From: Tupaia tana
Lineage: Eukaryota; Chordata; Mammalia; Scandentia; Tupaiidae
Direction of reading: 5' to 3'
Assembly (NCBI GenBank): GCA_026018925.1
Contig: JAKSZU010000212.1
Location: forward strand, 1-64,000
Length of the DNA stretch: 64,000 bases
Part shown: piece after piece, positions 5,764 to 61,201 of the stretch
How the letters are laid out: each line of letters starts with the position of its first letter
Numbering within the stretch: position 1 is the stretch's first letter
The notes under the pieces: generated by a model
Told to the model about the DNA's origin: nothing
What the model saw: the letters and a program-made list of their open reading frames with translations, nothing else
The model's database searches: none
Position numbers and translations under genes: made by a program

Positions 5764-6141
5764 AAGGAGCAGAAGTGCTTATTAACAAAACAAAAGATGG
5801 AGCTGAGAGCCAGAGAGAAATTCTACCTTTAAAAAAATCGTAAAAAGGAAAAATTACCAAAAATTGAGGAGACAGGAGCAGAGAGAGACAGAGACCTCAG
5901 AGACACAGAGACAGGGATAGAAGGCCAGAGGGACTCCCTACCACACTACCTTTGCTTGCTGGAGGCTGAATTATGAGTAGAAAATCTTCATTTCGCCTGT
6001 GACCTGAAATATCTAGTTCCCAGTATCCATGTGGAATCTTCTCAGAGAATGGCTCAACTCTCCTGCCTGGGAGAAAGGAGCAGAAGGGCTTATTAATAAA
6101 ACAAAAGATGGAGCTGAGAGCCAGAGAGAAATTCTACCTTT

Positions 6142-6159
6142 AAAAAAATCGTAAAAAGG
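6142..6159 (+). repeat. Target-site duplication, 5' copy, of SINE 1
   Basis: The 18-bp 'aaaaaaatcgtaaaaagg' stands immediately before the SINE and again after its A tail at 6421-6438. Uninterrupted monomers have it once, followed by 'aaaaattacc'. It is preceded by 'cttt', so first-strand nicking fits TTT/AAAA, the LINE-1 endonuclease type of site. The tail merges with the A run of the duplication, so the 3' boundary could shift by several A. Confidence 0.85.
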
Positions 6160-6420
6160 GGAACCAGCAGTTAGTGTAATGGTTATGTCGCTGGACTCCC
6201 ACGTAGTCGACCGCGGTTCGCGTTTCGGACCCGGTGGCTTACAACTCACGCCGGGCGCGAGTGCGTGAGTGCCCAGGATCCCGAGAGGAGAATGGAGGAG
6301 AAGGGATTGCGGCATGACCATCACCCCTGGGGGGTGATTTCTCGCTTTCTGTCTCTATGTCTCTCTCTGTCTGTCTGGCGAGCGCACGCGCCCTATAGCG
6401 AAAAAACCTCTCCAAAAAAA
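6160..6420 (+). mobile_element. tRNA-derived SINE, copy 1
   Basis: A 261-bp insertion, GC- and CpG-rich against an A-rich satellite. The 5' third is tRNA-like. It has an A box, TAGTGTAATGG (6172-6182), and a B box, GGTTCGCGTTT (6215-6225), 43 bp apart. Between them a possible anticodon arm GACT-CCCACGT-AGTC can pair 4 bp with a 7-base loop. The middle part is tRNA-unrelated ('cttacaactcacgccggg', 'gaggagaatggaggag'). The 3' part is CT-rich ('tctctatgtctctctctgtc'), followed by 'cctctcc' and the A tail. There is no ORF, no AATAAA and no internal T4 terminator. Private changes are 'ggttatg' for 'ggctatg' and 'cgtttcgg' for 'cgtctcgg'. tRNA-Arg-like features around 'taatgg' and 'ctggact' are a weak hint of the parent tRNA. 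I do not recognise the family. Confidence 0.92.
6172..6225 (+). promoter_or_regulatory. Internal RNA polymerase III promoter (A and B boxes) of SINE 1
   Basis: TAGTGTAATGG fits the A-box consensus TRGYNNARNNG at every position. GGTTCGCGTTT fits the GGTTCG core of the B box, with departures at A7 and at the final pyrimidines. The spacing is normal for tRNA genes and SINEs. The other nine copies have the same arrangement, usually with GGTTCGCGTCT. Copy 8 alone has a changed first B-box base. Confidence 0.75.
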
Positions 6421-7788
6421 AAAAAAATCGTAAAAAGGAAAAATTACCAAAAAATGAGGAGACAGGAGCAGAGAGAGACAGAGACGTCAGAGACACAGAG
6501 ACAGGGATAGGAGGCCAGAGGGGCTCCCTACCACACTAGCTTTGCTTGCTGGAGGCTGAATTATGAGTAGAAAATCTTCATTTCGCCTGTGCCCTGAAAT
6601 ATCTAGTTCCCAGTAGCCATGTGGAAACTTCTCAGAGAATGGCTCAACTCTGCTGCCTGGGAGAAAGGAGCAGAAGGGCTTATTAACAAAACAAATGATG
6701 GAGCTGAGAGCCAGAGAGAAATTCTACCTTTAAAAAATCGTAAAAAGAAAAAATTACCAAAAATGAATGACGAGACAGGAGCAGAGAGAGACAGAGACCT
6801 CAGAGACACAGAGACAGGGATAGAAGGCCAGAGGGGCTCCCTACCACACTAGCTTTGCTTGCTGGAGGCTGAATTATGAGTAGAAAATCTTCATTTCGCC
6901 TGTGCCCTGAAATATCTAGTTCCCAGTAGCCATGTGGAATCTTCTAAGAGAATGGCTCAACTCTCCTGCCTGGGAGAAAGGAGCAGAAGGGCTTATTAAC
7001 AAAACAAAAGATGGAGCTGAGAGCCAGAGAGAAATTCTACCTTTAAAAAAATCATGAAAAGGAAAAATTACCAAAAAAATGAGGAGACAGGGCAGAGAGA
7101 GACAGAGACCTCAGAGACACAGAGAAAGGGATAGAAGGCCAGAGGGGCTCCCTACCACACTAGCTTTGCTTGCTGGAGGCTGAATTATGAGTAGAAAATC
7201 TTCATTGCGCCTGTGCCCTGAAATATCTAGTTCCCAGTATCCATGTGGAATCTTCTCAGAGAATGGCTCAACTCTCCTGCCTGGGAGAAAGGAGCAGAAG
7301 GGCTTATTAACAAAACAAAAGATGGAGCTGAGAGCCAGAGAGAAATTCTACCTTTAAAAAATCGTAAATAGGAAAAATTACCAAAAAAATATGAGGAGAC
7401 AGGAGCAGAGAGAGACAGAGACCTCAGAGACACAGAGAAAGGGATAGAAGGCCAGAGGGGCTCCCTACCACACTAGCTTTGCTTTCTGGAGGCTGAATTA
7501 TGAGTAGAAAATCTTCATTTCGCCTGTGCCCTGAAATATCTAGTTCCCAGTATCCATGTGGAATCCTCTCAGAGAATGGCTCAACTCTCCTGCCTGGGAG
7601 AAAGGAGCAGAAGGGCTTATTAACAAAACAAAAGATGGAGCTGAGAGCCAGAGAGAAATTCTACGTTTAAAAAAATCGTAAAAAGGAAAAATTACCAAAA
7701 AAAAATGAGGAGACAGGAGCAGAGAGAGACAGAGACCTCAGAGACAAAGAGACAGGGATAGAAGGCCCGAGGGGCTCCCTACCACACT

Positions 7789-10605
7789 AGCTTTGCTTGC
7801 TGGAGGCTGAATTATGAGTAGAAAATCTTCATTTCGCCTGTGCCCTGAAATATCTAGTTCCCAGTATCCATGTGGAATCTTCTCAGAGAATGGCTCAACT
7901 CTCCTGCCTGGGAGAAAGGAGCAGAAGGGCTTATTAACAAAACAAAAGATGGAGCTGAGAGCCAGAGGGAAACTCTACCTTTAAAAAAATTGTAAAAAGA
8001 AAAATTAACAAAAAAAATGAGGAGACAGGAGCAGAGAGAGACAGAGACCTCAGAAACACAGAGACAGGTATAGAAGGCCAGAGGGGTTCCCTACCACACT
8101 AGCTTTGCTTGCTGGAGGCTGAGTTATGAGTAGATAATCTTCATTTGGCCTGTGCCCTGAAATATCTAGTTCCCAGTAGCCATGTGGAATCTTCTCAGAG
8201 AATGGCTCAACTCTCCTGCCTGGGAGAAAGGAGCAGAAGGGCTTATTAAGGAAACAAAAATGGAGCTGTGAGCCAGAGATAAATTCTACCTTTAAAAAAA
8301 TCGTAAAAAGGAAAAATTACGAAAAAAATGAGGTGACAGGAGCAGAGAGAGACAGAGACCTCAGAGACACAGATACAGGGATAGAAGGCCAGAGGGGCTC
8401 CCTACCACACTATCTTTGCTTGCTGGAGGCTGAATTATGAGTAGAAAATCTTCATTGCGCCTGTGCCCTGAAATATCTAGTTCCCAGTATCCATGTGGAA
8501 TCTTCTCAGAGAATGGCTCAACTCTCCTGCCTGGGAGAAAGGAGCAGAAGGGCTTATTAACAAAACAAAAGATGGAGCTGACAGCCAGAGAGAAATTCTA
8601 CCTTTAAAAAATCGTAAATAGGAAAAATTACCAAAAAAATATGAGGAGACAGGAGCAGAGAGAGACAGAGACCTCAGAGACACAGAGAAAGGGATAGAAG
8701 GCCAGAAGGGCTCCCTACCACACTAGCTTTGCTTTCTGGAGGCTGAATTATGAGTAGAAAATCTTCATTTCGCCTCTGCCCTGAAATATCTAGTTCCCAG
8801 TATCCATGTGGAATCTTCTCAGAGAATGGCTCAACTCTCCTGCCTGGGAGAATGGAGCAGAAGGGGCTTATTAACAAAACAAAAGATGGAGCTGAGAGCC
8901 AGAGAGAAATTCTACGTTTAAAAAAATCGTAAAAAGGAAAAATTACCAAAAAAAAATGAGGAGACAGGAGCAGAGAGAGACAGAGACCTCAGAGACACAG
9001 AGACAGGGATAGAAGGCCCGAGGGGCTCCCTACCACACTAGCTTTGCTTGCTGGAGGCTGAATTATGAGTAGAAAATCTTCATTTCGCCTGTGCCCTGAA
9101 ATATCTAGTTCCCAGTATCCATGTGGAATCTTCTCAGAGAATGGCTCAACTCTCCTGCCTGGGAGAAAGGAGCAGAAGGGCTTATTAACAAAGCAAAAGA
9201 TGGAGCTCAGAGCCAGAGAGAAACTCTACCTTTAAAAAAATTATAAAAAGAAAAATTAAAAAAAAAAAATGAGGAGACAGGAGCAGAGAGAGACAGAGAC
9301 CTCAGAAACACAGAGACAGGTATAGAAGGCCAGAGGGGTTCCCTACCACACTAGCTTTGCTTGCTGGAGGCTGAGTTATGAGTAGATAATCTTCATTTGG
9401 CCTGTGCCCTGAAATATCTAGTTCCCAGTAGCCATGTGGAATCTTCTCAGAGAATGGCTCAACTCTCCTGCCTGGGAGAAAGGAGCAGAAGGGCTTATTA
9501 AAGAAACAAAAATGGAGCTGAGAGCCAGAGATAAATTCTACCTTTAAAAAAATCGTAAAAAGGAAAAATTACGAAAAAAATGAGGTGACAGGAGCAGAGA
9601 GAGACAGAGAACTCAGAGACACAGAGACAGGGATAGAAGGCCAGAGGGGCTCCCTACCACACTAGCTTTGCTTGCTGGAGGCTGAATTATGAGTAGAAAA
9701 TCTTCATTTCGCCTGTGCCCTGAAATATCTAGTTCCCAGTAGCCATGTGGAATCTTCTCAGAGAATGGTTCAACTCTCCTGCCTGGGAGAAAGGAGCAGA
9801 AGGGCTTATTAACCAAACAAAAGATGGAGCTGAGAGCCAGAGAGAAATTCTACCTTTAAAAGAATCGTAAAAAGGAAAAATTACCAAAAATAAATGAGGA
9901 GACAGGAGCAGAGAGAGACAGAGACCTCAGAGAAACAGAGACAGGGATAGAAGGTCAGAGGAGCTCCCTATCACACTAGCTTTGCTTGCTGGAGGCTGAA
10001 TTATGAGTAGAAAATCTTCATTTCGCCTGTGCCCTGAAATATTTAATTCCCAATATCCATGTGGAAACTTCTCAGAGAATGGCTCAACTCTCCTGCCTGG
10101 GAGAAAGGAGCAGAAGGGCTTATTAACAAAACAAAAGATGGAGCTGAGAGCCAGGAGAGAGAATTATACCTTTAAAAAAATTGTAAAAAGGAAAAATTAC
10201 CAAAAAATTGAGGAGACTGGAGCAGAGAGAGACACAGAACTCAGACACACAGACACAGGGATAGAAGGCCAGAGGGGCTCCCTACCACACAAACTTTGCT
10301 TGCTGGAGGCTGAATTATGAGTAGAAAATCTTCATTTCGCCTGTGCCCTGAAATATCTAGTTCCCAGTATCCATGTGGAAACTTCTCAGAGAATGGCTCA
10401 ACTCTCCTGCCTGGGAGAAAGGAGCAGAAGGGCTTATTAACAAAACAAAAGATGGAGCTGAGAGCCAGTGAGAAATTCTACCTTTAAAAAAATCGTAAAA
10501 ATGAAAAATTACCAAAAAAATAGGAGGAGACAGGAGCAGAGAGAGAAAGAGACCTCAGAGACACAGAGACAGGGATAGAAGGCCAGAGGGGCTCCCTACC
10601 ACACT
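7789..10605 (+). repeat. 9-monomer higher-order repeat (2.82 kb), unit 1
   Basis: Monomers in order a-b-c-d-a'-b-e-f-g start at 7789, 8101, 8412, 8725, 9040, 9353, 9664, 9978 and 10292. Every monomer matches its partner in the next unit 2,811-2,817 bp downstream. Shared marks include 'ggagctgtgagcc', 'agatacaggg' and 'actatctttgc' in b, 'gagaatggagcag' in d, and 'aaagcaaaag' with 'gagctcag' in a'. Private marks here are an extra G in 'aaggggctt' of the d monomer and a disturbed 'gccaggagagagaattat' in f. Confidence 0.9.
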
Positions 10606-13419
10606 AGCTTTGCTTGCTGGAGGCTGAATTATGAGTAGAAAATCTTCATTTCGCCTGTGCCCTGAAATATCTAGTTCCCAGTATCCATGTGGAATCTTCT
10701 CAGAGAATGGCTCAACTCTCCTGCCTGGGAGAAAGGAGCAGAAGGGCTTATTAACAAAACAAAAGATGGAGCTGAGAGCCAGAGAGAAACTCTACCTTTA
10801 AAAAAATTGTAAAAAGAAAAATTAACAAAAAAAATGAGGAGACAGGAGCAGAGAGAGACAGAGACCTCAGAAACACAGAGACAAGTATAGAAGGCCAGAG
10901 GGGTTCCCTACCACACTAGCTTTGCTTGCTGGAGGCTGAGTTATGAGTAGATAATCTTCATTTGGCCTGTGCCCTGAAATATCTAGTTCCCAGTAGCCAT
11001 GTGGAATCTTCTCAGAGAATGGCTCAACTCTCCTGCCTGGGAGAAAGGAGCAGAAGGGCTTATTAAGGAAACAAAAATGGAGCTGTGAGCCAGAGATAAA
11101 TTCTACCTTTAAAAAAATCGTAAAAAGGAAAAATTACGAAAAAAATGAGGTGACAGGAGCAGAGAGAGACAGAGACCTCAGAGACACAGATACAGGGATA
11201 GAAGGCCAGAGGGGCTCCCTACCACACTATCTTTGCTTGCTGGAGGCTGAATTATGAGTAGAAAATCTTCATTGCGCCTGTGCCCTGAAATATCTTGTTC
11301 CCAGTATCCATGTGGAATCTTCTCAGAGAATGGCTCAACTCTCCTGCCTGGGAGAAAGGAGCAGAAGGGCTTATTAACAAAACAAAAGATGGAGCTCAGA
11401 GCCAGAGAGAAATTCTACCTTTAAAAAATCGTAAATAGGAAAAATTACCAAAAAAATATGAGGAGACAGGAGCAGAGAGAGACAGAGACCTCAGAGACAC
11501 AGAGAAAGGGATAGAAGGCCAGAAGGGCTCCCTACCACACTAGCTTTGCTTTCTGGAGGCTGAATTATGAGTAGAAAATCTTCATTTCGCCTCTGCCCTG
11601 AAATATCTAGTTCCCAGTATCCATGTGGAATCTTCTCAGAGAATGGCTCAACTCTCCTGCCTGGGAGAATGGAGCAGAAGGGCTTATTAACAAAACAAAA
11701 GATGGAGCTGAGAGCCAGAGAGAAATTCTACGTTTAAAAAAATCGTAAAAAGGAAAAATTACCAAAAAAAATGAGGAGACAGGAGCAGAGACAGACAGAG
11801 ACCTCAGAGACACAGAGACAGGGATAGAAGGCCCGAGGGGCTCCCTACCACACTAGCTTTGCTTGCTGGAGGCTGAATTATGAGTAGAAAATCTTCATTT
11901 CGCCTGTGCCCTGAAATATCTAGTTCCCAGTATCCATGTGGAATCTTCTCAGAGAATGGCTCAACTCTCCTGCCTGGGAGAAAGGAGCAGAAGGGCTTAT
12001 TAACAAAGCAAAAGATGGAGCTCAGAGCCAAAGAGAAACTCTACCTTTAAAAAAATTATAAAAAGAAAAATTAACAAAAAAAATGAGGAGACAGGAGCAG
12101 AGAGAGACAGAGACCTCAGAAACACAGAGACAGGTATAGAAAGCCAGAGGGGTTCCCTACCACACTAGCTTTGCTTGCTGGAGGCTGAGTTATGAGTAGA
12201 TAATCTTCATTTGGCCTGTGCCCTGAAATATCTAGTTCCCAGTAGCCATGTGGAATCTTCTCAGAGAATGGCTAAACTCTCCTGCCTGGGAGAAAGGAGC
12301 AGAAGGGCTTATTAAAGAAACAAAAATGGAGCTGAGAGCCAGAGATAAATTCTACCTTTTAAAAAATCGTAAAAAGGAAAAATTACGAAAAAAATGAGGT
12401 GACAGGAGCAGAGAGAGACAGAGAACTCAGAGACACAGAGACAGGGATAGAAGGCCAGAGGGGCTCCCTACCACACTAGCTTTGCTTGCTGGAGGCTGAA
12501 TTATGAGTAGAAAATCTTCATTTCGCCTGTGCCCTGAAATATCTAGTTCCCAGTAGCCATGTGGAATCTTCTCAGAGAATGGTTCAACTCTCCTGCCTGG
12601 GAGAAAGGAGCAGAAGGGCTTATTAACCAAACAAAAGATGGAGCTGAGAGCCAGAGAGAAATTCTACCTTTAAAAGAATCGTAAAAAGGAAAAATTACCA
12701 AAAATAAATTTGGAGACAGGAGCAGAGAGAGACAGAGACCTCAGAGAAACAGAGACAGGGATAGAAGGTCAGAGGAGCTCCCTATCACACTAGCTTTGCT
12801 TGCTGGAGGCTGAATTATGAGTAGAAAATCTTCATTTCGCCTGTGCCCTGAAATATTTAATTCCCAATATCCATGTGGAAACTTCTCAGAGAATGGCTCA
12901 ACTCTCCTGCCTGGGAGAAAGGAGCAGAAGGGCTTATTAACAAAACAAAAGATGGAGCTGAGAGCCAGAGAGAAATTCTACCTTTAAAAAAATTGTAAAA
13001 AGGAAAAATTACCAAAAAATTGAGGAGACTGGAGCAGAGAGAGACACAGACCTCAGACACACAGACACAGGGATAGAAGGCCCAGAGGGGCTCCCTACCA
13101 CACAAACTTTGCTTGCTGGAGGCTGAATTATGTGTAGAAAATCTTCATTTCGCCTGTGCCCTGAAATATCTAGTTCCCAGTATCCATGTGGAAACTTCTC
13201 AGAGAATGGCTCAACTCTCCTGCCTGGGAGAAAGGAGCAGAAGGGCTTATTAACAAAACAAAAGATGGAGCTGAGAGCCAGTGAGAAATTCTACCTTTAA
13301 AAAAATCGTAAAAATGAAAAATTACCAAAAAAAATAGGAGGAGACAGGAGCAGAGAGAGAAAGAGACCTCAGAGACACAGAGACAGGGATAGAAGGCCAG
13401 AGGGGCTCCCTACCACACT
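10606..13419 (+). repeat. 9-monomer higher-order repeat (2.81 kb), unit 2
   Basis: Monomers a-b-c-d-a'-b-e-f-g start at 10606, 10918, 11229, 11542, 11855, 12167, 12478, 12792 and 13105. The unit directly follows unit 1 in the same phase. Its monomers also match the unit at 18699-21510 with an offset of 8,092-8,093 bp. Private marks include 'caagtatag' in a, 'atcttgttcc' in c and 'attatgtgtag' in g. Confidence 0.9.
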
Positions 13420-13733
13420 AGCTTTGCTTGCTGGAGGCTGAATTATGAGTAGAAAATCTTCATTTCGCCTGTGCCCTGAAATATCTATTTCCCAGTATCC
13501 ATGTGGAATCTTCTCGGAGAATGGCTCAACTCTGCTGCCTGGGAGAAAGGAGCAGAAGGGCTTATTAACAAAACAAATGATGGACCTGAGAGCCAGAGAG
13601 AAATTCTACCTTTAAAAAAATCGTAAAAAGGAAAAATTACCAAAAATGAATGACGAGACAGGAGCAGAGTGAGACACAGACCTCAGAGACACAGAGACAG
13701 GGATAGAAGGCCAGAGGGGCTCCCTACCACACT
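13420..13733 (+). repeat. Single linker monomer (type h variant) between HOR and duplicated block
   Basis: One 314-bp monomer with 'ttctcggagaatgg', 'gatggacctgag' and 'gaatgacgag' of type h, but with 'gtgccctg' and 'atctatttcc' and a longer A tract. It separates HOR unit 2 from copy 2 of the 10-monomer block. Confidence 0.78.
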
Positions 13734-16700
13734 AGCTTTGCTTGCTGGAGGCTGAATTATGAGTAGAAAACCTTCATTTCGCCTGTGCCCTGAAATATCT
13801 TGTTCCCAGTATCCATGTGGAAACTTCTCAGAGAATGGCTCAACTCTCCTGCCTGGGAGAAAGGAGCAGAAGGGCTTATTAACAAAACAAAAGATGGAGC
13901 TGAGAGCCAGTGAGAAATTCTACCTTTAAAAAAATCGTAAAAATGAAAAATTACCAAAAAAATAGGAGGAGACAGGAGCAGAGAGAGAAAGAGACCTCAG
14001 AGACACAGAGACAGGGATAGAAGGCCAGAGGGGCTCCCTACCACACTAGCTTTGCTTGCTGGAGGCTGAATTATGAGTAGAAAATCTTCATTTCGCCTGT
14101 GTCTTGAAATATCTGGTTCCAAGTATCCATGTGGAATCTTCTCGGAGAATGGCTCAACTCTGCTGCCTGGGAGAAAGGAGCAGAAGGGCTTATTAACAAA
14201 ACAAATGATGGACCTGAGAGCCAGAGAGAAATTCTACCTTTAAAAAATCGTAAAAAGAAAAAATTACCAAAAATGAATGACGAGACATGAGCAGAGTGAG
14301 ACAGAGACCTCAGAGACACAGAGACAGGGATAGAAGGCCAGAGGGGCTCCCTACCACACTAGCTTTGCTTGCTGGAGGCTGAATTATGAGTAGAAAACCT
14401 TCATTTCGCCTCTGCCCTGAAATATCTTGTTCCCAGTAGCCATGTGGAAACTTCTCAGAGAATGGCTCAACTCTCCTGCCTGGGAGAAAGGAGCAGAAGG
14501 GCTTATTAACAAAACAAAAGATGGAGCTGAGAGCCAGTGAGAAATTCTACCTTTAAAAGAATCGTAAAAAGGAAAAATTACCAAAAATAAATTTGGAGAC
14601 AGGAGCAGAGAGAGACAGAGACCTCAGAGACACAGAGACAGGGATAGAAGGCCAGAGGGGCTCCGTACCACACGAGCTTTGCTTGCTGGAGGCTGAATTA
14701 TGAGTAGAAAACCTTCATTTCGCCTGTGCCCTGAAATATCTAGTTCCCAGTATCCATGTGGAATCTTCTCAGAGAATGGCTCAACTCTCCTGCCTGGGAG
14801 AAAGGAGCAGAAGGGCTTATTAACAAAACAAAAGATGGAGCTGAGAGTCAGAGAGAAATTCTGCCTTTTAAAAAATCGTAAAAAGAAAAATTACCAAAAA
14901 AATGAGGAGACAGGAGCAGAGAGAGACAGAGACCTCAGAGACACAGTGAGAGGGATAGAAGGCCAAAGGGTCTCCCTACCACACTAGCTTTGCTTGCTGG
15001 AGGCTGAATTATAAGTAGAAAATCTTCATTTCGCCTGTTCCCTGAAATATCTAGTTCCCAGTATCCATGTGGAATCTTCTCAGAGAATGGCTCAACTCTC
15101 CTGCCTGGGAGAAAGGAGCAGAAGTGCTTATTAACAAAACAAAAGATGGAGCTGAGAGCCAGAGAGAAATTCTACCTTTAAAAAAATCGTAAAAAGGAAA
15201 AATTACCAAAAATTGAGGAGACAGGAGCAGAGAGAGACAGAGACCTCAGAGACACAGAGACAGGGATAGAAGGCCAGAGGGACTCCCTACCACACTACCT
15301 TTGCTTGCTGGAGGCTGAATTATGAGTAGAAAATCTTCATTTCGCCTGTGACCTGAAATATCTAGTTCCCAGTATCCATGTGGAATCTTCTCAGAGAATG
15401 GCTCAACTCTCCTGCCTGGGAGAAAGGAGCAGAAGGGCTTATTAATAAAACAAAAGATGGAGCTGAGAGCCAGAGAGAAATTCTACCTTTAAAAAAATCG
15501 TAAAAAGGGGAACCAGCAGTTAGTGTAATGGCTATGTCGCTGGACTCCCACGTAGTCGACCGCGGTTCGCGTCTCGGACCCGGTGGCTTACAACTCACGC
15601 CGGGCGCGAGTGCGTGAGTGCCCAGGATCCCGAGAGGAGAATGGAGGAGAAGGGATTGCGGCATGACCATCACCCCTGGGGGGTGATTTCTCGCTTTCTG
15701 TCTCTATGTCTCTCTCTGTCTGTCTGGCGAGCGCACGCGCCCTATAGCGAAAAAACCTCTCGAAAAAAAAAAAATCGTAAAAGGAAAAATTACCAAAAAA
15801 ATGAGGAGACAGGAGCAGAGAGAGACAGAGACGTCAGAGACACAGAGACAGGGATAGAAGGCCAGAGGGGCTCCCTACCACACTAGCTTTGCTTGCTGGA
15901 GGCTGAATTATGAGTAGAAAATCTTCATTTCGCCTGTGCCCTGAAATATCTAGTTCCCAGTAGCCATGTGGAAACTTCTCAGAGAATGGCTCAACTCTGC
16001 TGCCTGGGAGAAAGGAGCAGAAGGGCTTATTAACAAAACAAATGATGGAGCTGAGAGCCAGAGAGAAATTCTACCTTTAAAAAATCGTAAAAAGAAAAAA
16101 TTACCAAAAATGAATGACGAGACAGGAGCAGAGAGAGACAGAGACCTCAGAGACACAGAGACAGGGATAGAAGGCCAGAGGGGCTCCCTACCACACTAGC
16201 TTTGCTTGCTGGAGGCTGAATTATGAGTAGAAAATCTTCATTTCGCCTGTGCCCTGAAATATCTAGTTCCCAGTAGCCATGTGGAATCTTCTAAGAGAAT
16301 GGCTCAACTCTCCTGCCTGGGAGAAAGGAGCAGAAGGGCTTATTAACAAAACAAAAGATGGAGCTGAGAGCCAGAGAGAAATTCTACCTTTAAAAAAATC
16401 ATGAAAAGTAAAAATTACCAAAAAAATGAGGAGACAGGGCAGAGAGAGACAGAGACCTCAGAGACACAGAGAAAGGGATATAAGGCCAGAGGGGCTCCCT
16501 ACCACACTAGCTTTGCTTGCTGGAGGCTGAATTATGAGTAGAAAATCTTCATTGCGCCTGTGCCCTGAAATATCTAGTTCCCAGTATCCATGTGGAATCT
16601 TCTCAGAGAATGGCTCAACTCTCCTGCCTGGGAGAAAGGAGCAGAAGGGCTTATTAACAAAACAAAAGATGGAGCTGAGAGCCAGAGAGAAATTCTACCT

Positions 16701-17135
16701 TTAAAAAATCGTAAATAGGAAAAATTACCAAAAAAATATGAGGAGACAGGAGCAGAGAGAGACAGAGACCTCAGAGACACAGAGAAAGGGATAGAAGGCC
16801 AGAGGGGCTCCCTACCACACTAGCTTTGCTTTCTGGAGGCTGAATTATGAGTAGAAAATCTTCATTTCGCCTGTGCCCTGAAATATCTAGTTCCCAGTAT
16901 CCATGTGGAATCCTCTCAGAGAATGGCTCAACTCTCCTGCCTGGGAGAAAGGAGCAGAAGGGCTTATTAACAAAACAAAAGATGGAGCTGAGAGCCAGAG
17001 AGAAATTCTACGTTTAAAAAAATCGTAAAAAGGAAAAATTACCAAAAAAAAATGAGGAGACAGGAGCAGAGAGAGACAGAGACCTCAGAGACAAAGAGAC
17101 AGGGATAGAAGGCCCGAGGGGCTCCCTACCACACT
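13734..17135 (+). repeat. 10-monomer duplicated block, copy 2 (contains SINE 2)
   Basis: Monomers start at 13734, 14048, 14361, 14675, 14986, 15297 (SINE, 588 bp), 15885, 16198, 16509 and 16822. They match 4380-7788 in order with offsets of 9,347-9,354 bp. Differences I can see include loss of the private insertion of 5007, 'aaaagtaaaaatt' at 16198, 'gatataagg' at 16198 and a one-base-shorter 3' target duplication. After 17135 the partner changes: the next monomer (17136) matches 9040 and not 7789. That marks a duplication breakpoint inside the HOR. Confidence 0.88.
15509..15767 (+). mobile_element. tRNA-derived SINE, copy 2
   Basis: Same element and same monomer position as copy 1, 9,349 bp downstream. 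The 5' target duplication is at 15491-15508; the 3' copy at 15768-15784 has lost one A. The 3' end reads 'ctctcg' before a 12-A run where the others have 'ctctcc'. A box TAGTGTAATGG and B box GGTTCGCGTCT are intact. It belongs to the group with 'gcgtgagtgccc' and 'gcggcatgacc'. Confidence 0.92.
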
Positions 17136-25402: not shown

Positions 25403-25662
25403 GGAACCAGCAGTTAGTGTAATGGCTATGTCGCTGGACTCCCACGTAGTCGACCGCGGTTCGCGTCTCGGACCCAGTGGCTTACAACTCACGCCGGGCG
25501 CGAGTGCGTGAGTGCCCAGGATCCCGAGAGGAGAATGGAGGAGAAGGGATTGCGGCATGACCATCACCCCTGGGGGGTGATTTCTCGCTTTCTGTCTCTA
25601 TGTCTCTCTCTGTCTGTCTGGCGAGCGCACGCGCCCTATAGCGAAAAAACCTCTCCAAAAAA
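25403..25662 (+). mobile_element. tRNA-derived SINE, copy 5
   Basis: Target duplications are at 25385-25402 and 25663-25680. It has 'gacccagtgg' like copy 3, which sits 2,115 bp upstream. The following tail has 'gacagacacgtcag', a private change. A and B boxes are intact. Confidence 0.92.
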
Positions 25663-51913: not shown

Positions 51914-52540
51914 AGCTTTGCTTGCTGGAGGCTGAATTATGAGTAGAGAATCTTCATTTCGCCTGTGCCCTGATATAACTAGTTCTCAGTATCCATGTGG
52001 AATCTTCTCAGAGAATGGCTCAACTCTCCTGCCTGGGAGAAAGGAGCAGAAGGGCTTATTAACAAAACAAATGATGGAGCTGAGAGCCAGAGAGAAATTC
52101 TACCTTTAAAGAATCGTAAAAAGAAAAAATTACCAAAAATGAATGACGAGACAGGAGCAGAGAGAGACAGAGACCTCAGAGACACAGAGACAGGGATAGA
52201 AGGCCAGAGGGGCTCCCTACCACAGAAGCTTTGCTTGCTGGAGGCTGAATTATGAGTAGAAAATCTCCATTTCGCCTGTGCCCTGAAATATCTAGTTCCC
52301 AGTAGCCATGTGGAATCTTCTCAGAGAATGGCTCAACTCTCCTGCCTGGGAGAAAGGAGCAGAAGGGCTTATTAATAAAACAAAAGATGGAGCTGAGAGC
52401 CAGAGAGAAATTCTACCTTTAAAAGAATCCTAAAAAGGAAAAATTACCAAAAATAAATGAGGAGACAGGAGCAGAGAGAGACAGAGACCTCAGAGACACA
52501 GAGACAGGGATAGAAGGACAGAGGGGCTCCCTACCACACT
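51914..52540 (+). repeat. 7-mer HOR, partial copy 4: m-n only, intact junction
   Basis: Monomers start at 51914 and 52227, 2,191 bp after 49723 and 50036, with the same 'cacagaagctttg' junction and 'aatctccattt'. After n the series switches to the c-d-t-y block and not to o. Confidence 0.9.
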
Positions 52541-53794
52541 AGCTTTGCTTGCTGGAGGCTGAATTATGAGTAGAAAATCTTCATTGCGCCTGTGCCCTGA
52601 AATATCTAGTTCCCAGTATCCAGGGGGAATCTTCTCAGAGAATGGCTCAACTCTCCTGCATGGGAGAAAGGAGCAGAAGGGCTTATTAACAAAACAAAAG
52701 ATGGAGCTGAGAGCCAGAGAGAAATTCTACCTTTAAAAAATCGTAAATAGGAAAAATTACCAAAAAAATATGAGGAGACAGTAGCAGAGAGAGACAGAGA
52801 CCTCAGAGACACAGAGAAAGGGATAGAAGGCCAGAGGGGCTCCCTACCACACTAGCTTTGCTTTCTGGAGGCTGAATTATCAGTAGAAAATCTTCATTTC
52901 GCCTCTGCCCTGAAATATCTAGTTCCCAGTATCCATGTGGAATCTTCTCAGAGAATGGCTCAACTCTCCTGCCTGGGAGAAAGGAGCAGAAGGGCTTATT
53001 AACAAAACAAAAGATGGAGCTGAGAGCCAGAGAGAAATTCTACGTTTAAAAAAATCGTAAAAAGGAAAAATTACCAAAAAAAAATGAGGAGACAGGAGCA
53101 GAGAGAGACAGAGACCTCAGAGACACAGGGACAGGGATAGAAGGCCAGAGGGGCTCCCTACCACACTAGCTTTGCTTGCTGGAGGCTGAATTATGAGTAG
53201 AAAATCTTCATTTCGCCTGTGCCCTGAAATATCTAGTTCCCAGTATCCATGTGGAATCTTCTCAGAGAATGGCTCAACTCTCCTGCCTGGGAGAAAGGAG
53301 CAGAAGGGCTTATTAACAAAACAAAAGATGGAGCTGAGAGCCAGAGAGAAATTCTACCTTTAAAAAAATCGTAAAAATGAAAAATTACTAAAAAAATAGG
53401 AGGAGACAGGAGCAGAGAGATACAGAGACCTCAGAGACACAGAGACAGGGGTAGAAGGCCAGAGGGGCCCCTACCACACTAGCTTTGCTTGCTGGAAGCT
53501 GAATTATGAGTAGAAAATCTTCATTTCGCCTGTGCCCTGAAATATCTAGTTCCCAGTATCCATGTGGAATCTTCTCAGAGAATGGCTCAACTCTCCTGCC
53601 TGGGAGAAAGGAGCAGAAGGGCTTATTAACAAAACAAAAGATGGAGCTGAGAGCCAGAGAGAAATTCTACCTTTAAAAAAATCGTAAAAATGAAAAATTA
53701 CAAAAAAAATAGGAGGAGACAGGAGCAGAGAGAGAAAGAGACCTCAGAGACACAGAGACAGGTATCGAAGTCCAGAGGGGCTCCCTACCACACT
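52541..53794 (+). repeat. 4-monomer block c-d-t-y, copy 2
   Basis: Monomers start at 52541, 52854, 53168 and 53481, with 'tatccagggggaatc', 'attatcagtag', 'aggggcccctac' and 'gtatcgaagtcc' as in 46310-47563. Private changes in c are 'cctgcatggg' and 'gacagtagcag'. Confidence 0.9.
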
Positions 53795-54389
53795 AGCTTT
53801 GCTTGCTGGAGGCTGAATTATGAGTAGAGAATCTTCATTTCGCCTGTGCCCTGATATAACTAGTTCTCAGTATCCATGTGGAATCTTCTCAGAGAATGGC
53901 TCAACTCTCCTGCCTGGGAGAAAGGAGCAGAAGGGCTTATTAACAAAACAAATGATGGAGCTGAGAGCCAGAGAGAAATTCTACCTTTAAAGAATCGTAA
54001 GAAGAAAAAATTACCAAAAATGAATGACGAGACAGGAGCAGAGAGAGACAGAGACCTCAGAGACACAGAGACAGGGATAGAAGGCCAGAGGGGCTCCCTT
54101 ATGGGTAGAAAATCTTCATTTCGCCTGTGCCCTGAAATATCTAGTTCCCAGTAGCCATGTGGAATCTTCTCAGAGAATGGCTCAACTCTCCTGCCTGGGA
54201 GAAAGGAGCAGAAGGGCTTATTAATAAAACAAAAGATGGAGCTGAGAGCCAGAGAGAAATTCTACCTTTAAAAGAATCCTAAAAAGGAAAAATTACCAAA
54301 AATAAATGAGGAGAAAGGAGCAGAGAGAGACAGAGACCTCAGAGACACAGAGACAGGGATAGAAGGACAGAGGGGCTCCCTACCACACT
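53795..54389 (+). repeat. Fused monomer pair m/n with 32-bp deletion, copy 3
   Basis: Same deletion at 54099/54100 as in 42903-43497 and 47564-48158, here followed by 'tatgggtag', a private base change. The neighbouring y monomer is also shared with copy 2, so the deletion travels with the t-y block. Confidence 0.92.
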
Positions 54390-56580
54390 AGCTTTGCTTG
54401 CTGGAGGCTGAATTATGAGTAGAAAATCTTCATTTCGCCTGTGCCCTGAAATATCTAGTTCCCAGTATCCATGTGGAATCTTCTCAGAGAATGGCTCAAC
54501 TCTCCTGCCTGGGAGAAAGGAGCAGAAGTGCTTATTAACAAAACAAAAGATGGAGCTGAGAGCCAGAGAGAAATTCTACCTTTAAAAAATCATAAACAGG
54601 AAAAATTACCAAAAATGAATGACGAGACAGGAGCAGAGCAAGACAGAGACCTCAGAGACACAAAGACAGGGATAGAAGTCCAGAGGGGCTCCCTACCACA
54701 CTACCTTTGCTTGCTGGAGGCTGAATTATGAGTCGAAAATCTTCATTTCGCCTGTGCCCTGTAATATCTAGTTCCCAGTATCCATGTGGTACCTTCTCAG
54801 AGAATGGCTCAACTCTCCTGCCTGGGAGAAAGGAGCAGAAGGGCTTATTAACAAAACAAAAGATGGAGCTGAGAGCCAGAGAGAAATTCTACGTTTAAAA
54901 AAATCGTAAAAAGGAAAAATTACCAAAAAAAATGAGGAGAGAGGAGCAGAGAGAGACAGAGACCTCAGAGACACAGAGAAAGGGATAGAAGTCCCGAGGG
55001 GCTCCCTACCACACTAGCTTTGCTTGCTGGAGGCTGAATTATGAGTAGAAAATCTTCATTTCGCCTGTGCCCTGAAATATTTAGTTCCCAGTATCCATGT
55101 GGAATCTTCTCAGAGAATGGCTCATCTCTCCTGCCTGGGAGAAAGGAGCAGAAGGGCTTATTAACAAAACAAAAGATGGAGCTGAGAGCCAGTGAGAAAT
55201 TCTACCTTTAAAAAAATCGTAAAAATGAAAAATTACCAAAAAAATAGGAGGAGACAGGAGCAGAGAGAGAAAGAGACCTCAGAGACACAGAGACAGGGAT
55301 AGAAGGCCAGAGGGGCTCCAAACCACACGAGCTTTTCTTGCTGGAGGCTGAATTATGAGTAGAAAATCTTCATTTCGCCTGTGCCCTGAAATATCTAGTT
55401 CCCAGTATCCATGTGGTATCTTCTCAGAGAATGGCTCAACTCTCCTGCCTGGGAGAAAGGAGCAGAAGGGCTTATTAACAAAACAAAAGATGGAGCTGAG
55501 AGCCAGAGAGAAATTCTACCTTTAAAAAAATCGTAAAAAGGAAAAATTACCAAAAAAATGAGGAGACAGGAGCAGAGAGAGACAGAGACCTCAGAGACAC
55601 AGAGACAGGTATCGAAGTCCAGAGGGGCTCCCTACCACACTAGCTTTCCTTGCTGGAGGCTGAATTATGAGTAGAGAATCTTCATTTCGCCTGTGCCCTG
55701 AAATAACTAGTTCTCAGTATCCATGTGGAATCTTCTCAGAGAATGGCTCAACTCTCCTGCCTGGGAGAAAGGAGCAGAAGGGCTTATTAACAAAACAAAT
55801 GATGGAGCTGAGAGCCAGAGAGAAATTCTACCTTTAAAGAATCGTAAAAAAAAAAATTACCAAAAATGAATGACGAGACAGGAGCAGAGAGAGACAGAGA
55901 CCTCAGAGACACAGAGACAGGGATAGAAGGCCAGAGGGGCTCCCTACCACACTAGCTTTGCTTGCTGGAGGCTGAATTATGAGTAGAAAATCTTCATTTC
56001 GCCTGTGCCCTGAAATATCTAGTTCCCAGTAGCCATGTGGAATCTTCTCAGAGAATGGCTCAACTCTCCTGCCTTGGAGAAAGGAGCAGAAGGGCTTATT
56101 AATAAAACAAAAGATGGAGCTGAGAGCCAGAGAGAAATTCTACCTTTAAAAGAATCCTAAAAAGGAAAAATTACCAAAAATAAATGAGGAGACAGGAGCA
56201 GAGAGAGACAGAGACCTCAGAGACACAGAGACAGGGATAGAAGGACAGAGGGGCTCCCTACCACACTAGCTTTGCTTGCTGGAGGCTGAATTATGAGTAG
56301 AAAATCTTCATTTCGCCTGTGCCCTGAAATATCTAGTTCCCAGTATCCATGTGGAATCTTCTCAGAGAATGGCTCAACTCTCCTGCCTGGGAGAAAGGAG
56401 CAGAAGTGCTTATTAACAAAACAAAAGATGGAGCTGAGAGCCAGAGAGAAATTCTATCTTTAAAAAATCATAAACAGGAAAAATTACCAAAAATGAATGA
56501 CGAGACAGGAGCAGAGAAAGACAGAGACCTCAGAGACACAAAGACAGGGATAGAAGGCCAGAGGGGCTCCCTACCACACT
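54390..56580 (+). repeat. Seven satellite monomers with a 1,878-bp spaced duplication
   Basis: Monomers start at 54390, 54703, 55016, 55330, 55642, 55954 and 56268. 54390 and 56268 are copies ('aatcataaacagg', 'cacaaagacagg'). The 5' half of 54703 matches that of 56581 ('gagtcgaaaatc', 'tgtggtacc'). 55642 and 55954 are m and n types with an intact junction. 55016 is an s-like monomer, and its end has 'ggctccaaaccacacgagc'. Confidence 0.83.
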
Positions 56581-58109
56581 AGCTTTGCTTGCTGGAGGCT
56601 GAATTATGAGTCGAAAATCTTCATTTCGCCTGTGCCCTGAAATATCTAGTTCCCAGTATCCATGTGGTACCTTCTCAGTGAATGGCTCAACTCTCCTGCC
56701 TGGGAGAAAGGAGCAGAAGGGCTTATTAACAAAACAAAAGATGGAGCTGAGAGCCAGAGAGAAATTCTACCTTTAAAAAAATTTTAAAAAGGAAAAATTA
56801 CCAAAAAATTGAGGAGACTGGAGCAGAGAGAGACACAGACCTCAGAGACACAGAGACAGGGATAGAAGGCCAGAGGGGCTCCCTACGACACAAGCTTTCC
56901 TTGCTGGAGGCTGAATTATGAGTAGAAAATCTTCATTTCGCCTGTGCCCTGAAATATCTAGTTCCCAGTATCCATGTGGAATCTTCTCAGAGAATGGCTC
57001 AACTCTCCTGCCTGGGAGAAAGGAGCAGAAGGGCTTATTAACAAAACAAAAGATGGAGCTGAGAGCCAGAGAGAAATTCTACCTTTAAAAAAATCGTAAA
57101 AATGAAAAATTACCAAAAAAATAGGAGGAGACAGGAGCAGAGAGAGACAGAGACCTCAGAGACACAGTGAGAGGGATAGGAGACCAGAGGGTCTCCCTAC
57201 CACACTAGCTTTGCTTGCTGGAGGCTGAATTATGAGTAGAAAATCTTCATTTCGCCTGTGCCCTGAAATATCTAGTTCCCAGTATCCATGTGGAATCTTC
57301 TCAGAGAATGGCTCAACTCTCCTGCCTGGGAGAAAGGAGCAGAAGGGCTTATTAAAAAAACAAAAGATGGAGCTGAGAGCCAGAGAGAAATTCTACCTTT
57401 AAAAAAATCGTAAAAAGGGGAACCAGCAGTTAGTGTAATGGCTATGTCGCTGGACTCCCACGTAGTCGACCGCGGTTCGCGTCTCGGACCCGGTGGCTTA
57501 CAACTCACGCCGGGGGCGAGTGCGTGCGTGCCCAGGATCCCGAGAGGAGAATGGAGGAGAAGGGATTGCGGCGTGACCATCACCCCTAGGGGGTGATTTC
57601 TCGCTTTCTGTCTCTATGTCTCTCTCTGTCTCTCTGGCGAGCGCACGCGCCCTATAGCGAAAAATCCTCTCCAAAAAAAAAAAAAATCGTAAAAAGGAAA
57701 AATTACCAAAAAAATGAGGAGACAGGAGCAGAGAGAGACAGAGACGTCAGAGACACAGAGACAGGGATAGAAGGCCAGAGGGGCTCCCTACCACACTAGC
57801 TTTCCTTGCTGGAGGCTGAATTATGAGTAGAAAATCTTCATTTCGCCTGTGCCCTGAAATATCTAGTTCCCAGTATCCATGTGGAATCTTCTCAGAAAAT
57901 GGCTCAACTCTCCTGCCTGGGAGAAAGGAGCAGGAGGGCTTATTAACAAAACAAAAGATGGAGCTGAGAGCCAGAGAGAAATTCTACCTTTAAAAAATTC
58001 GTAAAAAGGAAAAATTACCAAAAAAATGAGGAGACAGGAGCAGAGAGAGACAGAGACCTCAGAGACACAGAGACAGGTATAGAAGGCCAGAGGGGCTCCC
58101 TACCACACT
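56581..58109 (+). repeat. 1.53-kb duplicated block, copy 1 (contains SINE 9)
   Basis: Monomers start at 56581, 56893, 57207 (SINE) and 57798. They recur at 59672-61201 with an offset of 3,090-3,092 bp. Shared marks are 'aaaattttaaaaagg', 'ccctacgacacaagc', 'gtgagagggatagg', 'gggtctccc', 'tattaaaaaaacaaaag' (one more A in copy 2), 'agctttccttg' and 'cttctcagaaaatgg'. The following monomer, 58110, has no counterpart after copy 2. Confidence 0.9.
57419..57679 (+). mobile_element. tRNA-derived SINE, copy 9
   Basis: Target duplications are at 57401-57418 and 57680-57697. With copy 10 it forms a subgroup having 'ccgggggcgag' for 'ccgggcgcgag' and a substituted 3' end ('gaaaaatcctctcc'). Private changes are 'cccctaggggg' and 'tgtctctctgg'. 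A and B boxes are intact. Confidence 0.92.
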
Positions 58110-59671
58110 AGCTTTGCTTGCTGGAGGCTGAATTATGAGTAGAAAATCTTCATTTCGCCTGTGCCCTGAAATATCTAGTTCCCAGTATCCATGTGGAAAC
58201 TTCACAGAGAATGGCTCAACTCTCCTGCCTGGGAGAAAGGAGCAGAAGGGCTTATTAACAAAACAAAAGATGGAGCTGAGTGCCAGAGAGAAATTCTACC
58301 TTTAAAAAATCGTAAATAGGAAAAATTACCAAAAAAATATGAGGAGACAGGAGCAGAGAGATACAGAGACCTCAGAGACACAGAGACAGGGATAGAAGGC
58401 CAGAGGGGCTCCCTACCACACTAGCTTTGCTTGCTGGAGGCTGAATTATGAGTAGAAAATCTTCATTTCGCCTGTGCCCTGAAATATCTAGTTCCCAGTA
58501 TCCATGTGGAATCTTCTCAGAGAATGGCTCAGCTCTCCTGTCTGGGAGAAAGGAGCAGAAGGGCTTATAAACAAAACATAAGATGGAGTTGAGAGCCAGA
58601 GAGAAATTCTACCTTTAAAAAAATCGTAAAAAGGAAAAATTACCAAAAAAAATGAGGAGACAGGAGCAGAGAGAGACAGAGACATCAGAGACACAGAGAC
58701 AGGGATAGAAGGCCAGAGGGGCTCCCTACCACACTAGCTTTGCTTGCTGGAGGCTGAATTATGAGTAGATAATGTTCATTTGGCCTGTGCCCTGAAATAT
58801 CTAGTTCCCAGTATCCATGTGGAATCTTCTCAGAGAATGGCTCAACTCTCCTGCCTGGGAGAAAGGAGCAGAAGGGCTTATTAACAAAACAAATGATGGA
58901 GCTGAGAGCCAGAGAGAAATTCTACCTTTAAAAAATCGTAAAAAGAAAAAATTACCAAAAATGAATGATGAGACAGGAGCAGAGAGGGACAGAGACCACA
59001 GAGACACAGAGACAGGGATAGAAGGCCAGAGAGGCTCCCTACCACACTAGCTTTGCTTGCTGGAGGCTGAATTATGAGTAGAAAATCTTCATTTCGCCTA
59101 TGCCCTGCAATATCTAGTTCCCAGTATCCATGTGGAATCTTCTCAGAGACTGGCTCAACTCTCCTGCCTGGGAGAAAGGAGCAGAAGGGCTTATTAACAA
59201 AACAAAAGATGGAGCTGAGAGCCAGAGAGAAATTCTACCTTAAAAAAATCGTAAATAGGAAAAATTACCAAAAAAATATGAGGAGACAGGAGCAGAGAGA
59301 TACAGAGACCTCAGACACAGAGACAGGTATAGAAGGACAGAGGGGCTCCCTACCACACTAGCTTTGCTTGCTGGAGGCTGAATTATGAGTAGATAATCTT
59401 CATTTGGCCTGTGCCCTGAAATATCTAGTTCCCCGTATCCATGTGTAATCTTCTCACATAATGGCTCAACTCTCCTGCTTAGGAGAAAGGAGCAGAAGGG
59501 CTTATTAATAAAACAAAAGATGGAGCTGAGAGCCAGAGAGAAATTCTACCTTTAAAAAAATCGTAAAAAGGAAAAATTACCAAAAAAATGAGGAGACAGG
59601 AGCAGAGAGAGACAGAGACGTCAGAGACACAGAGACAGGGATCGAAGTCCAGAGGGGCTCCCTACCACAAT
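58110..59671 (+). repeat. Five mixed satellite monomers
   Basis: Monomers start at 58110, 58423, 58736, 59049 and 59360. 58110 has 'acttcacagag' and 'gctgagtgcc'. 58423 has 'cctgtctggg'. 58736 begins as b/v ('gtagataatg') and ends as w ('gaatgatgag'). 59049 has 'ccctgcaatat'. 59360 has 'cccccgtatcc', 'cttctcacataatgg' and 'gcttaggag', making it one of the more altered monomers here. Confidence 0.83.
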
Positions 59672-61201
59672 AGCTTTGCTTGCTGGAGGCTGAATTATGA
59701 GTAGAAAATCTTCATTTCGCCTGTGCCCTGAAATATCTAGTTCCCAGTATCCATGTGGTAGCTTCTCAGAGAATGGCTCAACTCTCCTGCCTGGGAGAAA
59801 GGAGCAGAAGGGCTTATTAACAAAACAAAAGATGGAGCTGAGAGCCAGAGAGAATTCTACCTTTAAAAAAATTTTAAAAAGGAAAAATTACCAAAAAATT
59901 GAGGAGACTGGAGCAGAGAGAGACACAGACCTCAGAGACACAGAGACAGGGATAGAAGGCCAGAGGGGCTCCCTACGACACAAGCTTTGCTTGCTGGAGG
60001 CTGAATTATGAGTAGAAAATCTTCATTTCGCCTGTGCCCTGAAATATCTAGTTCCCAGTATCCATGTGGAATCTTCTCAGAGAATGGCTCAACTCTCCTG
60101 CCTGGGAGAAAGGAGCAGAAGGGCTTATTAACAAAACAAAAGATGGAGCTGAGAGCCAGAGAGAAATTCTACCTTTAAAAAAATCGTAAAAATGAAAAAT
60201 TACCAAAAAAATAGGAGGAGACAGGAGCAGAGAGAGACAGAGACCTCAGAGACACAGTGAGAGGGATAGGAGGCCAGAGGGTCTCCCTACCACACTAGCT
60301 TTGCTTGCTGGAGGCTGAATTATGAGTAGAAAATCTTCATTTCGCCTGTGCCCTGAAATATCTAGTTCCCAGTATCCATGTGGAATCTTCTCAGAGAATG
60401 GCTCAACTCTCCTGCCTGGGAGAAAGGAGCAGAAGGGCTTATTAAAAAAAACAAAAGATGGAGCTGAGAGCCAGAGAGAAATTCTACCTTTAAAAAAATT
60501 GTAAAAAGGGGAACCAGCAGTTAGTGTAATGGCTATGTCGCTGGACTCCCACGTAGTCGACCGCGGTTCGCGTCTCGGACCCGGTGGCTTACAACTCACG
60601 CCGGGGGCGAGTGCGTGCGTGCCCAGGATCCCGAGAGGAGAATGGAGGAGAAGGGATTGCGGCGTGACCATCACCCCTGGGGGGTGATTTCTCGCTTTCT
60701 GTCTCTATGTCTCTCTCTGTCTGTCTGGCGAGCGCACGCGCCCTATAGCGAAAAATACTCTCCAAAAAAAAAAAAAAATCGTAAAAAGGAAAAATTACCA
60801 AAAAAATGAGGAGACAGGAGCAGAGAGAGACAGAGACGTCAGAGACACAGAGACAGGGATAGAAGGCCAGAGGGGCTCCCTACCACACTAGCTTTCCTTG
60901 CTGGAGGCTGAATTATGAGTAGAAAATCTTCATTTCGCCTGTGCCCTGAAATATCTAGATCCCAGTATCCATGTGGAAACTTCTCAGAAAATGGCTCAAC
61001 TCTCCTGCCTGGGAGAAAGGAGCAGAAGGGCTTATTAACAAAACAAAAGATGGAGCTGAGAGCCAGAGAGAAATTCTACCTTTAAAAAATTCGTAAAAAG
61101 GAAAAATTACCAAAAAAATGAGGAGACAGGAGCAGAGAGAGACAGAGACCTCAGAGACACAGAGACAGGGATAGAAGGCCCGAGGGGCTCCCTACCACAC
61201 T
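59672..61201 (+). repeat. 1.53-kb duplicated block, copy 2 (contains SINE 10)
   Basis: Monomers start at 59672, 59983, 60297 (SINE) and 60890, matching 56581-58109. Private changes are 'tgtggtagc', 'gagagaattctacc', a C-to-T change in the 5' target duplication of the SINE, and 'tctagatccc' at 60890. Confidence 0.9.
60510..60771 (+). mobile_element. tRNA-derived SINE, copy 10
   Basis: Target duplications are at 60492-60509 (here 'aaaaaaattgtaaaaagg') and 60772-60789 (unchanged). It shares 'ccgggggcgag' with copy 9. Its 3' end reads 'gaaaaatactctcc'. A and B boxes are intact. The one-base mismatch between the two target duplications is the expected decay of a CpG. Confidence 0.92.

What the first reader, a model, noticed from the sequence alone, without database searches (positions are those of the whole stretch)
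5948..60889. One SINE insertion captured and amplified to ten copies by satellite expansion
All ten SINEs lie in the same orientation at the same base of the 312-bp monomer, each with the same 18-bp target duplication. Independent insertions would not do this, so a single insertion was multiplied by array growth. The 590-bp monomer is now a minority member of the array. This gives a dated internal marker for satellite turnover, because SINE divergence records time since capture.
Basis: seen in the sequence. Interest (0 to 1): 0.8.

Follow-up and report, generated by a model that had tools for sequence, protein, structure and literature searches.

The report
One SINE copied by satellite growth
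A short mobile element landed once in one unit of a long tandem-repeat array and was copied along with it, but other elements sit at the same landing spot elsewhere in the genome, so the shared spot alone does not prove a single landing.

Summary
In detail: ten SINEs, one strand, one monomer base, flanked by AAAAAAATCGTAAAAAGG (17-18 bp). The array is larger: C323:1-239128 has 736 monomers, 34 with the SINE, none with another insert of 30 bp or more; at least 27 copies with the same diagnostic motif lie on C243.

Forty array SINEs form one clade (98/92) among dispersed young-subfamily copies. A flank change 48 bp away marks 30 of 34 SINE-bearing and 2 of 702 empty monomers.

'Independent insertions would not do this' is contradicted. 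The monomer has one exact TT|AAAA, at the duplication start, and other arrays carry SINEs with other 5' ends at that base.

SINE divergence dates coalescence, not capture, and SINE and flank distances do not correlate.

In passing: substitutions in this array are transversion-rich and clustered.

Verdict: a new member of a known kind, useful as a satellite-turnover marker.

The parts
1..64000 (+). Part of a ~312-bp satellite array that runs to C323:239128 (736 monomers cut there); the window is the first 64 kb of that contig
6160..6420 (+). SINE copy 1 with A tail; target duplications 6142-6159 and 6421-6438
15509..15766 (+). SINE copy 2; duplications 15491-15508 and 15767-15784 (3' copy one A short near its end)
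23288..23547 (+). SINE copy 3; duplications 23270-23287 and 23548-23565
24501..24761 (+). SINE copy 4; duplications 24483-24500 and 24762-24779
25403..25662 (+). SINE copy 5; duplications 25385-25402 and 25663-25680
26618..26880 (+). SINE copy 6; duplications 26599-26617 (one extra A) and 26881-26898
29090..29351 (+). SINE copy 7; duplications 29072-29089 and 29352-29369; its 3' flank has C, not the linked G
39396..39657 (+). SINE copy 8; duplications 39378-39395 and 39658-39675 (one A>T in the 3' copy)
57419..57679 (+). SINE copy 9; duplications 57401-57418 and 57680-57697
60510..60771 (+). SINE copy 10; duplications 60492-60509 (one C>T) and 60772-60789
6139..6159 (+). Target site in copy 1: TTT|AAAAAAATCGTAAAAAGG. 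Exact TTAAAA occurs once in the 312-bp consensus, both strands counted (near matches: GTAAAA 11 bp on, TTAAAG on the other strand); taken as the first-strand nick (nick rule recalled)
   Evidence: sequence
6486..6486 (+). Flank variant linked to the SINE (C>G, alignment column 246): 30 of 34 SINE-bearing monomers, 2 of 702 empty ones
6097..6097 (+). Second flank variant (C>T, column 135): T in 53% of SINE-bearing and 4% of empty monomers; most copies of another SINE subclade have A here

Best explanation
A young, polyA-tailed SINE inserted once into one monomer of the genome's large 312-bp satellite by target-primed reverse transcription, with the nick at the only exact TT|AAAA in the monomer. 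The resulting ~590-bp monomer was then copied many times by duplication of blocks of monomers (unequal exchange; blocks of up to 18 monomers and steps of about 21 kb are visible). This gave 34 copies on C323 and at least 27 on C243, ten of them in the window. Exchange with empty monomers later reshuffled the flanks. Because most monomers offer the same nick site, other SINEs landed at the same base in other arrays and were multiplied there. Shown: shared site, one clade, linked flank variant, duplicated blocks, other SINE 5' ends at the same base. Inferred: the nicking enzyme, unequal exchange as the copying process, and that the other arrays' SINEs are separate insertions.
For: Same site and strand in 34 of 34 copies, no other insert of 30 bp or more in 239 kb. 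Forty array SINEs (34 from C323, 6 from C243) form one clade, support 98/92, among 21 dispersed copies of a young subfamily and 20 other dispersed copies. Position 117 is G in 34 of 34 against 1 of 21; position 164 is A in 34 of 34 against 0 of 21. SINE-bearing monomer flanks differ by 0.0199 on average against 0.0469 among empty ones; 0 of 5000 random sets as low. Flank G at column 246: 30 of 34 against 2 of 702. Flank tree with 110 of 702 empty monomers: 4 label changes against 31 shuffled. Neighbours of SINE monomers resemble one another at offsets -1, +1, +2 and +3 (z -5.4, -3.3, -2.8, -2.1); the longest shared blocks are 18, 16, 13, 13 and 12 monomers. Five SINE positions from 202065 to 208804 recur 21.0-21.3 kb on. 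SINE distance grows weakly with distance along the array (rank r 0.10, p 0.02). Nick site. Other SINE 5' ends at the same base.
Against: SINE and flank distances do not correlate overall (Mantel r 0.036, p 0.38; rank r -0.04, p 0.6), so a clean shared history is not seen, except that the 20 SINE pairs with at most one difference have flanks of 0.0094 against 0.0205. Four of 34 SINE-bearing monomers lack the linked G. In the 21-kb repeat the fifth pair agrees in position but not in SINE type: 230135 is closest to 214402, not to 208804. Position 164 A is not private: its exact 26-mer occurs 572 times, of which 28 are on C323 and 18 on C243. The exact parent copy was not found.
Confidence: 0.83

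Rival explanations
1. The SINE spread between monomers mainly by gene conversion (copying the SINE-bearing allele into empty monomers) rather than by duplication of blocks.
For: SINE and flank distances are not correlated; four-gamete violations in 63 of 230 left-flank/SINE site pairs and 49 of 276 SINE/right-flank pairs, and also in 23 of 253 pairs within the SINE; neighbour similarity fades within about four monomers, and 409 of 561 pairs of copies share only the SINE monomer itself.
Against: Immediate neighbours of SINE monomers are alike (z -5.4 and -3.3), and blocks of up to 18 monomers with matching SINE positions are duplicated. Conversion of single monomers would not carry neighbours.
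Confidence: 0.2
2. The ten copies are independent insertions at a hotspot.
For: One exact TT|AAAA per monomer; SINEs with other 5' ends occupy the same base in other arrays.
Against: The array SINEs form one clade, and most of their host monomers share a rare flank variant that independent hits would not bring.
Confidence: 0.03
3. All SINEs at this base in all arrays descend from one old insertion, later diversified or overwritten by dispersed SINEs.
For: Same base, same strand relative to the monomer and nearly the same duplication in the listed arrays.
Against: 5' ends differ at subfamily positions (GGGACC..TTAGCG, GGGAACC..TTAGCG, GGGAACC..TTAGTG). With a common-type body C852 scores best and C230 is not among the 40 scored hits; with the L060 body C230 scores best and C852 is not among them. 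This is suggestive only: flanks and length of the two queries also differ, only 40 candidates were scored each time, and C511 scores about the same with both (691, 694 bits). The window's SINE belongs to a young dispersed subfamily.
Confidence: 0.1
4. Extrachromosomal circles carrying SINE-bearing monomers were re-inserted at several places.
For: Copies of the same type lie on two contigs, with one equal spacing (9349 bp on C323, 9348 bp on C243).
Against: All 34 copies on C323 have one orientation and several SINE subclades are local. C243 and C323 may be parts of one array. Circle junctions were not searched for.
Confidence: 0.07
5. Assembly artefact that repeats one read.
For: The contig starts inside the satellite.
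Against: Copies differ in SINE, flanks and neighbours; their spacing runs from 592 to 30292 bp.
Confidence: 0.02

Closest known systems
Bovine satellites 1.711b and 1.709 with captured inserted elements (recalled; passages of PMC7644632 seen speak only of their monomer lengths)
   Same: A mobile element sits inside a satellite monomer and is multiplied with it
   Different: As recalled, the composite unit there is a satellite in its own right; here the 590-bp unit is under 5% of the array
TE insertions in divergent alpha-satellite layers (PMC9549924; passages, sections 2.8 and 2.9 read)
   Same: Insertions mark older, less homogenised satellite, and the age of inserted L1s is used to date layers
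   Different: Here one insertion was itself multiplied, and other SINE types occupy the same base elsewhere
SINE-derived satellites of scaled reptiles (PMC10702118; abstract and outline seen)
   Same: SINE sequence in tandem arrays
   Different: There parts of SINEs are the tandem repeat; here the SINE is a passenger in an older monomer
tRNA-derived SINEs mobilised by L1 (recalled)
   Same: A tail, target duplications, TT|AAAA site, tRNA-like 5' end by eye
   Different: No family name was found; Rfam and ARAGORN gave no match

Membership tests
L1-mobilised SINE insertion | Target duplication on both sides and A tail | tested here: met
   Ten of ten in the window, 8 of 10 exact on either side; 34 of 34 on the contig by inspection, several with point changes
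L1-mobilised SINE insertion | Nick at TT|AAAA | tested here: met
   One exact TTAAAA in the consensus, both strands counted, at the duplication start; near matches GTAAAA and TTAAAG also exist. The rule is recalled
L1-mobilised SINE insertion | Many dispersed copies with other flanks | tested here: met
   9734 exact matches of the 5' 21-mer with a base other than T at one flank place; 20 copies read
tRNA-derived SINE | Recognisable tRNA gene fold or RNA family | tested here: not met
   ARAGORN 0 genes in the window, Rfam 0 matches up to E 1 for 5900-7000. A degenerate tRNA part would escape both, so a tRNA origin is by eye only
Captured-element (composite) satellite | Same element at one fixed position in many monomers, from one insertion | tested here: met
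Captured-element (composite) satellite | Composite unit has become the main monomer or a regular higher-order unit | tested here: not met
   34 of 736 monomers; spacing on C323 irregular and not different from random in spread (1837 of 5000). On C199 and C472 some spacings do look regular

The most novel reading that the evidence does not exclude
The captured SINE is a reporter of a satellite-specific mutation process. Counted from the own consensus, SINEs in the array carry more transversions and fewer transitions than dispersed copies of the same subfamily (1.29 and 1.29 against 0.81 and 2.81 per copy), and satellite substitutions are nearly uniform over base types and clustered, as error-prone DNA synthesis might leave. 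With several SINE captures at one base in different arrays, the proposed hypermutability of divergent satellite layers becomes testable within one genome.
Probability: 0.33. Interest if true: 0.7.

Novelty: new member of a known kind. Interest (0 to 1): 0.5.

Why it matters
It gives a countable tag inside a major satellite, so that block size, exchange with untagged monomers and spread along an array can be measured. It also warns that a fixed insertion base does not prove a single insertion when each monomer carries one preferred nick site. If the transversion-rich pattern holds up, the tag allows a direct test of whether divergent satellite DNA mutates by a different process.

Tried and rejected
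Rejected: independent insertions for the window copies; assembly repetition; a centromere-protein B box in the array (0 exact matches on either strand of C323:1-239128; motif recalled); position 164 as a private mark (572 exact matches of its 26-mer), which I had first taken it for.

Led nowhere: Rfam and ARAGORN on the SINE. Paper searches for precedents: 44 and 65 returned no paper; the four titles and abstract starts speak of no SINE inserted in a satellite. For the others only listings were seen, apart from passages of PMC9659126, PMC7767330 and PMC7644632, the abstract and outline of PMC10702118 and passages and two sections of PMC9549924. These were strict word combinations in one library and do not show that such a case is unpublished. 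The species was not identified.

Results against a simple reading: the Mantel tests.
Full report
Setting. The window is the first 64 kb of contig C323 (324,175 bp) of an unnamed 2.95-Gb genome in 1198 contigs. It is one satellite array of ~312-bp monomers. I fetched C323 from 64,001 to 264,000. The array ends at 239,128 against non-satellite DNA; 737 monomer starts were found, cut into 736 units.

Observation. The ten SINEs are real, on one strand, at one base and full length. The array on this contig holds 34 such copies; two further SINE matches, at 239,440 and 248,714 (74.5% and 79.5% identity), lie outside the array. All 34 are at the same site; several have point changes at the junction, e.g. 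202658, 223676, 114164, 116939 and 208804. In 17 of 20 dispersed copies the SINE begins GGGAACC, so the duplication is 17 or 18 bp. A 22-mer across the empty site occurs 166,164 times exactly in the genome, so the satellite is at least about 52 Mb if each match is one monomer. On C323 only 179 of 737 monomers hold that exact 22-mer, so the true size is probably larger and is not fixed by this count.

One insertion for the window copies. Compared with 20 dispersed copies, the 40 array SINEs read (34 on C323, 6 on C243) agree on T66, C83, A101, G117 and A164; the 20 have T66 in 3, C83 in 4 and none of the other three. A motif with C83 and A101 has 66 exact matches: 17 on C323, 19 on C243, 30 elsewhere, on many contigs. 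I read 21 of those 30 (20, one): T66 in 19, G117 in 1 and A164 in 0 of 21, against 34 of 34 array copies on C323 each. A motif with A101 and G117 has 74 exact matches: 28 on C323, 27 on C243, 19 elsewhere; those 19 are of mixed type. A164 is not private: its exact 26-mer occurs 572 times, 28 on C323 and 18 on C243. In a maximum-likelihood tree of 81 rows the 40 array SINEs are one clade, support 98/92, among copies of the young subfamily; the tool notes that its bootstrap had not fully settled.

The host monomers tell the same. With the SINE cut out in the script, SINE-bearing monomers differ by 0.0199 per site on average, empty ones by 0.0469; none of 5000 random sets of 34 from the 736 was as close. 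G at alignment column 246 is in 30 of 34 SINE-bearing and 2 of 702 empty monomers; column 135 T is in 53% against 4%. On a flank tree with 110 of 702 empty monomers sampled, the SINE label needs 4 changes against 31 in shuffles; left flank alone 10 against 28, right flank alone 7 against 30. So the label is strongly clustered but not one clade.

How it was copied. Monomers beside SINE copies resemble one another at -1 (z -5.4), +1 (-3.3), +2 (-2.8) and +3 (-2.1), weakly at -2 and +4 (-1.6, -1.4), and not beyond. The longest shared blocks are 18, 16, 13, 13 and 12 monomers; 409 of 561 pairs of copies share only the SINE monomer itself at the threshold used. The positions 202065, 202658, 205119, 207276, 208804 recur at 223084, 223676, 226450, 228607, 230135, steps of 21.0-21.3 kb; four of the five pairs also fall together in the SINE tree, while 230135 goes with 214402. 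Several SINE subclades are local: 6160-26618, 57419-140948 (without 106069) and 171240-191518; SINE distance rises weakly with distance along the array (rank r 0.10, p 0.02). This fits repeated block duplication by unequal exchange, which is inference.

What does not fit a simple picture. SINE and flank distances do not correlate (r 0.036, p 0.38; rank r -0.04, p 0.6), and left and right flanks do not correlate positively either (rank r -0.23). Only the 20 SINE pairs with at most one difference have closer flanks, 0.0094 against 0.0205. Four of 34 lack the linked G. Flanks must therefore have exchanged with empty monomers, or been converted by them.

The same base carries other SINEs elsewhere. 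The consensus monomer holds one exact TTAAAA, both strands counted, where the duplication begins; GTAAAA 11 bp on and TTAAAG on the other strand are near matches. A junction pattern with up to 2 mismatches has 133 matches; the 100 listed include C199, C230, C236, C260, C360, C506, C852 and C1197 besides C243 and C323. A pattern for the GGGACC..TTAGCG type with up to 1 mismatch has 72 matches, among them 24 on C199, 13 on C230 and 11 on C472; some of the 72 are single hits on large contigs that need not be satellite. A wildcard junction pattern has 137 exact matches. The 5' ends thus differ at subfamily positions. Evidence on the bodies is indirect. With C323-type flanks and the L060 body, C230 scores best (696 bits) and C852 is not among the 40 scored hits; with consensus flanks and a common-type body, C852 scores best (749) and C230 is not among them. 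C511 scores about alike (691, 694), the two queries differ in flanks and length, and only 40 candidates are scored, so this is suggestive. Each is an exact match, so any other change would also remove it. As a control, SINE starts 2-14 bases after AAGGAAAA (the neighbouring near-match site) are absent from C199, C230, C236 and C243, whose first 100 of 726 matches run in contig order past them, whereas the canonical junction has 23, 11, 8 and 25 there. Different SINE 5' ends at one base point to several insertions; how many is open, as the bodies could not be read.

Dating. Non-CpG divergence from the own consensus is 0.0070 (46/6596) for array SINEs and 0.0087 (35/4012) for the 21 dispersed subfamily members; at CpG sites 0.0390 (61/1564) and 0.0417 (42/1006). 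So the array copies coalesced about when, or after, the subfamily was active. The 21 were picked by exact motifs, which lowers their divergence a little. No years are given because species and rate are unknown.

An unexpected pattern. In 171 clean alignment columns (near A runs and the GA-rich part left out) there are 115 transition and 220 transversion alleles, nearly equal rates per possible allele (1.14 and 1.05). Dispersed SINEs show 65 to 50 at non-CpG sites; Fisher p 4e-5 (alleles against cells, so approximate). Within the SINE itself, as distinct alleles outside positions 73-103, the array has 24 transitions to 23 transversions and the dispersed subfamily 42 to 14 (p 0.014); at non-CpG sites alone 12:17 against 17:12, not significant. 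Per copy the array has 1.29 and 1.29, the dispersed set 2.81 and 0.81, one dispersed copy alone bringing 13 transitions. Rare substitutions in one monomer cluster: 26 pairs at distance 1 and 21 at distance 2, against 6-11 at distances 3-10 and a mean of 3.0 at 20-99; 4 of 22 distinct adjacent changes look like shifted AG/GA and may be alignment effects, and pairs shared by descent are counted more than once. A neighbouring 28-bp minisatellite also leans to transversions (201:263 cells). Human segmental duplications show a much milder shift (Ti/Tv 1.78 against 2.06; PMC10172114, passages seen), and a review reports a proposed hypermutability of divergent alpha-satellite layers through error-prone synthesis (PMC9549924, sections 2.8-2.9). 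The link is inference.

Noticed in passing
C323:1-239128 including window 1-64000: Satellite substitutions are nearly uniform over base types (115 transition to 220 transversion alleles in clean columns) and clustered at distances 1-2, unlike dispersed SINEs of the same genome.
   Followed up: partly
C199:279693-290460 and C472:7617-29537: SINE junctions recur at 2150-2157 bp (five steps on C199) and often near 3085 bp (four of seven steps on C472), as if a SINE-bearing monomer had become part of a higher-order repeat there.
   Followed up: no
C323:202065-208804 and 223084-230135: A run of five SINE positions is repeated with a 21.0-21.3-kb step; 21.7-kb steps occur on C243.
   Followed up: partly
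C323 array, last monomers before 239128: Shortened 125-bp monomers stand in tandem at the array edge (3 spacings of 125 bp).
   Followed up: no
C323:250620-259239 and 259247-263793: The flank holds an 8.6-kb 28-bp minisatellite followed by a long, degenerate TGTCATTT/GACACGTG repeat.
   Followed up: no
C2 and C3 (whole genome): The exact empty-site motif is much denser on these contigs than on C323 (51 matches in 24 kb and 49 in 19 kb, against 179 in 239 kb), so C323 looks like a more divergent part of the same satellite.
   Followed up: no
C1197:106.7-107.4 Mb: Four SINE-satellite junctions lie in the middle of a 163.7-Mb contig, a possible centromere or pericentromere.
   Followed up: no
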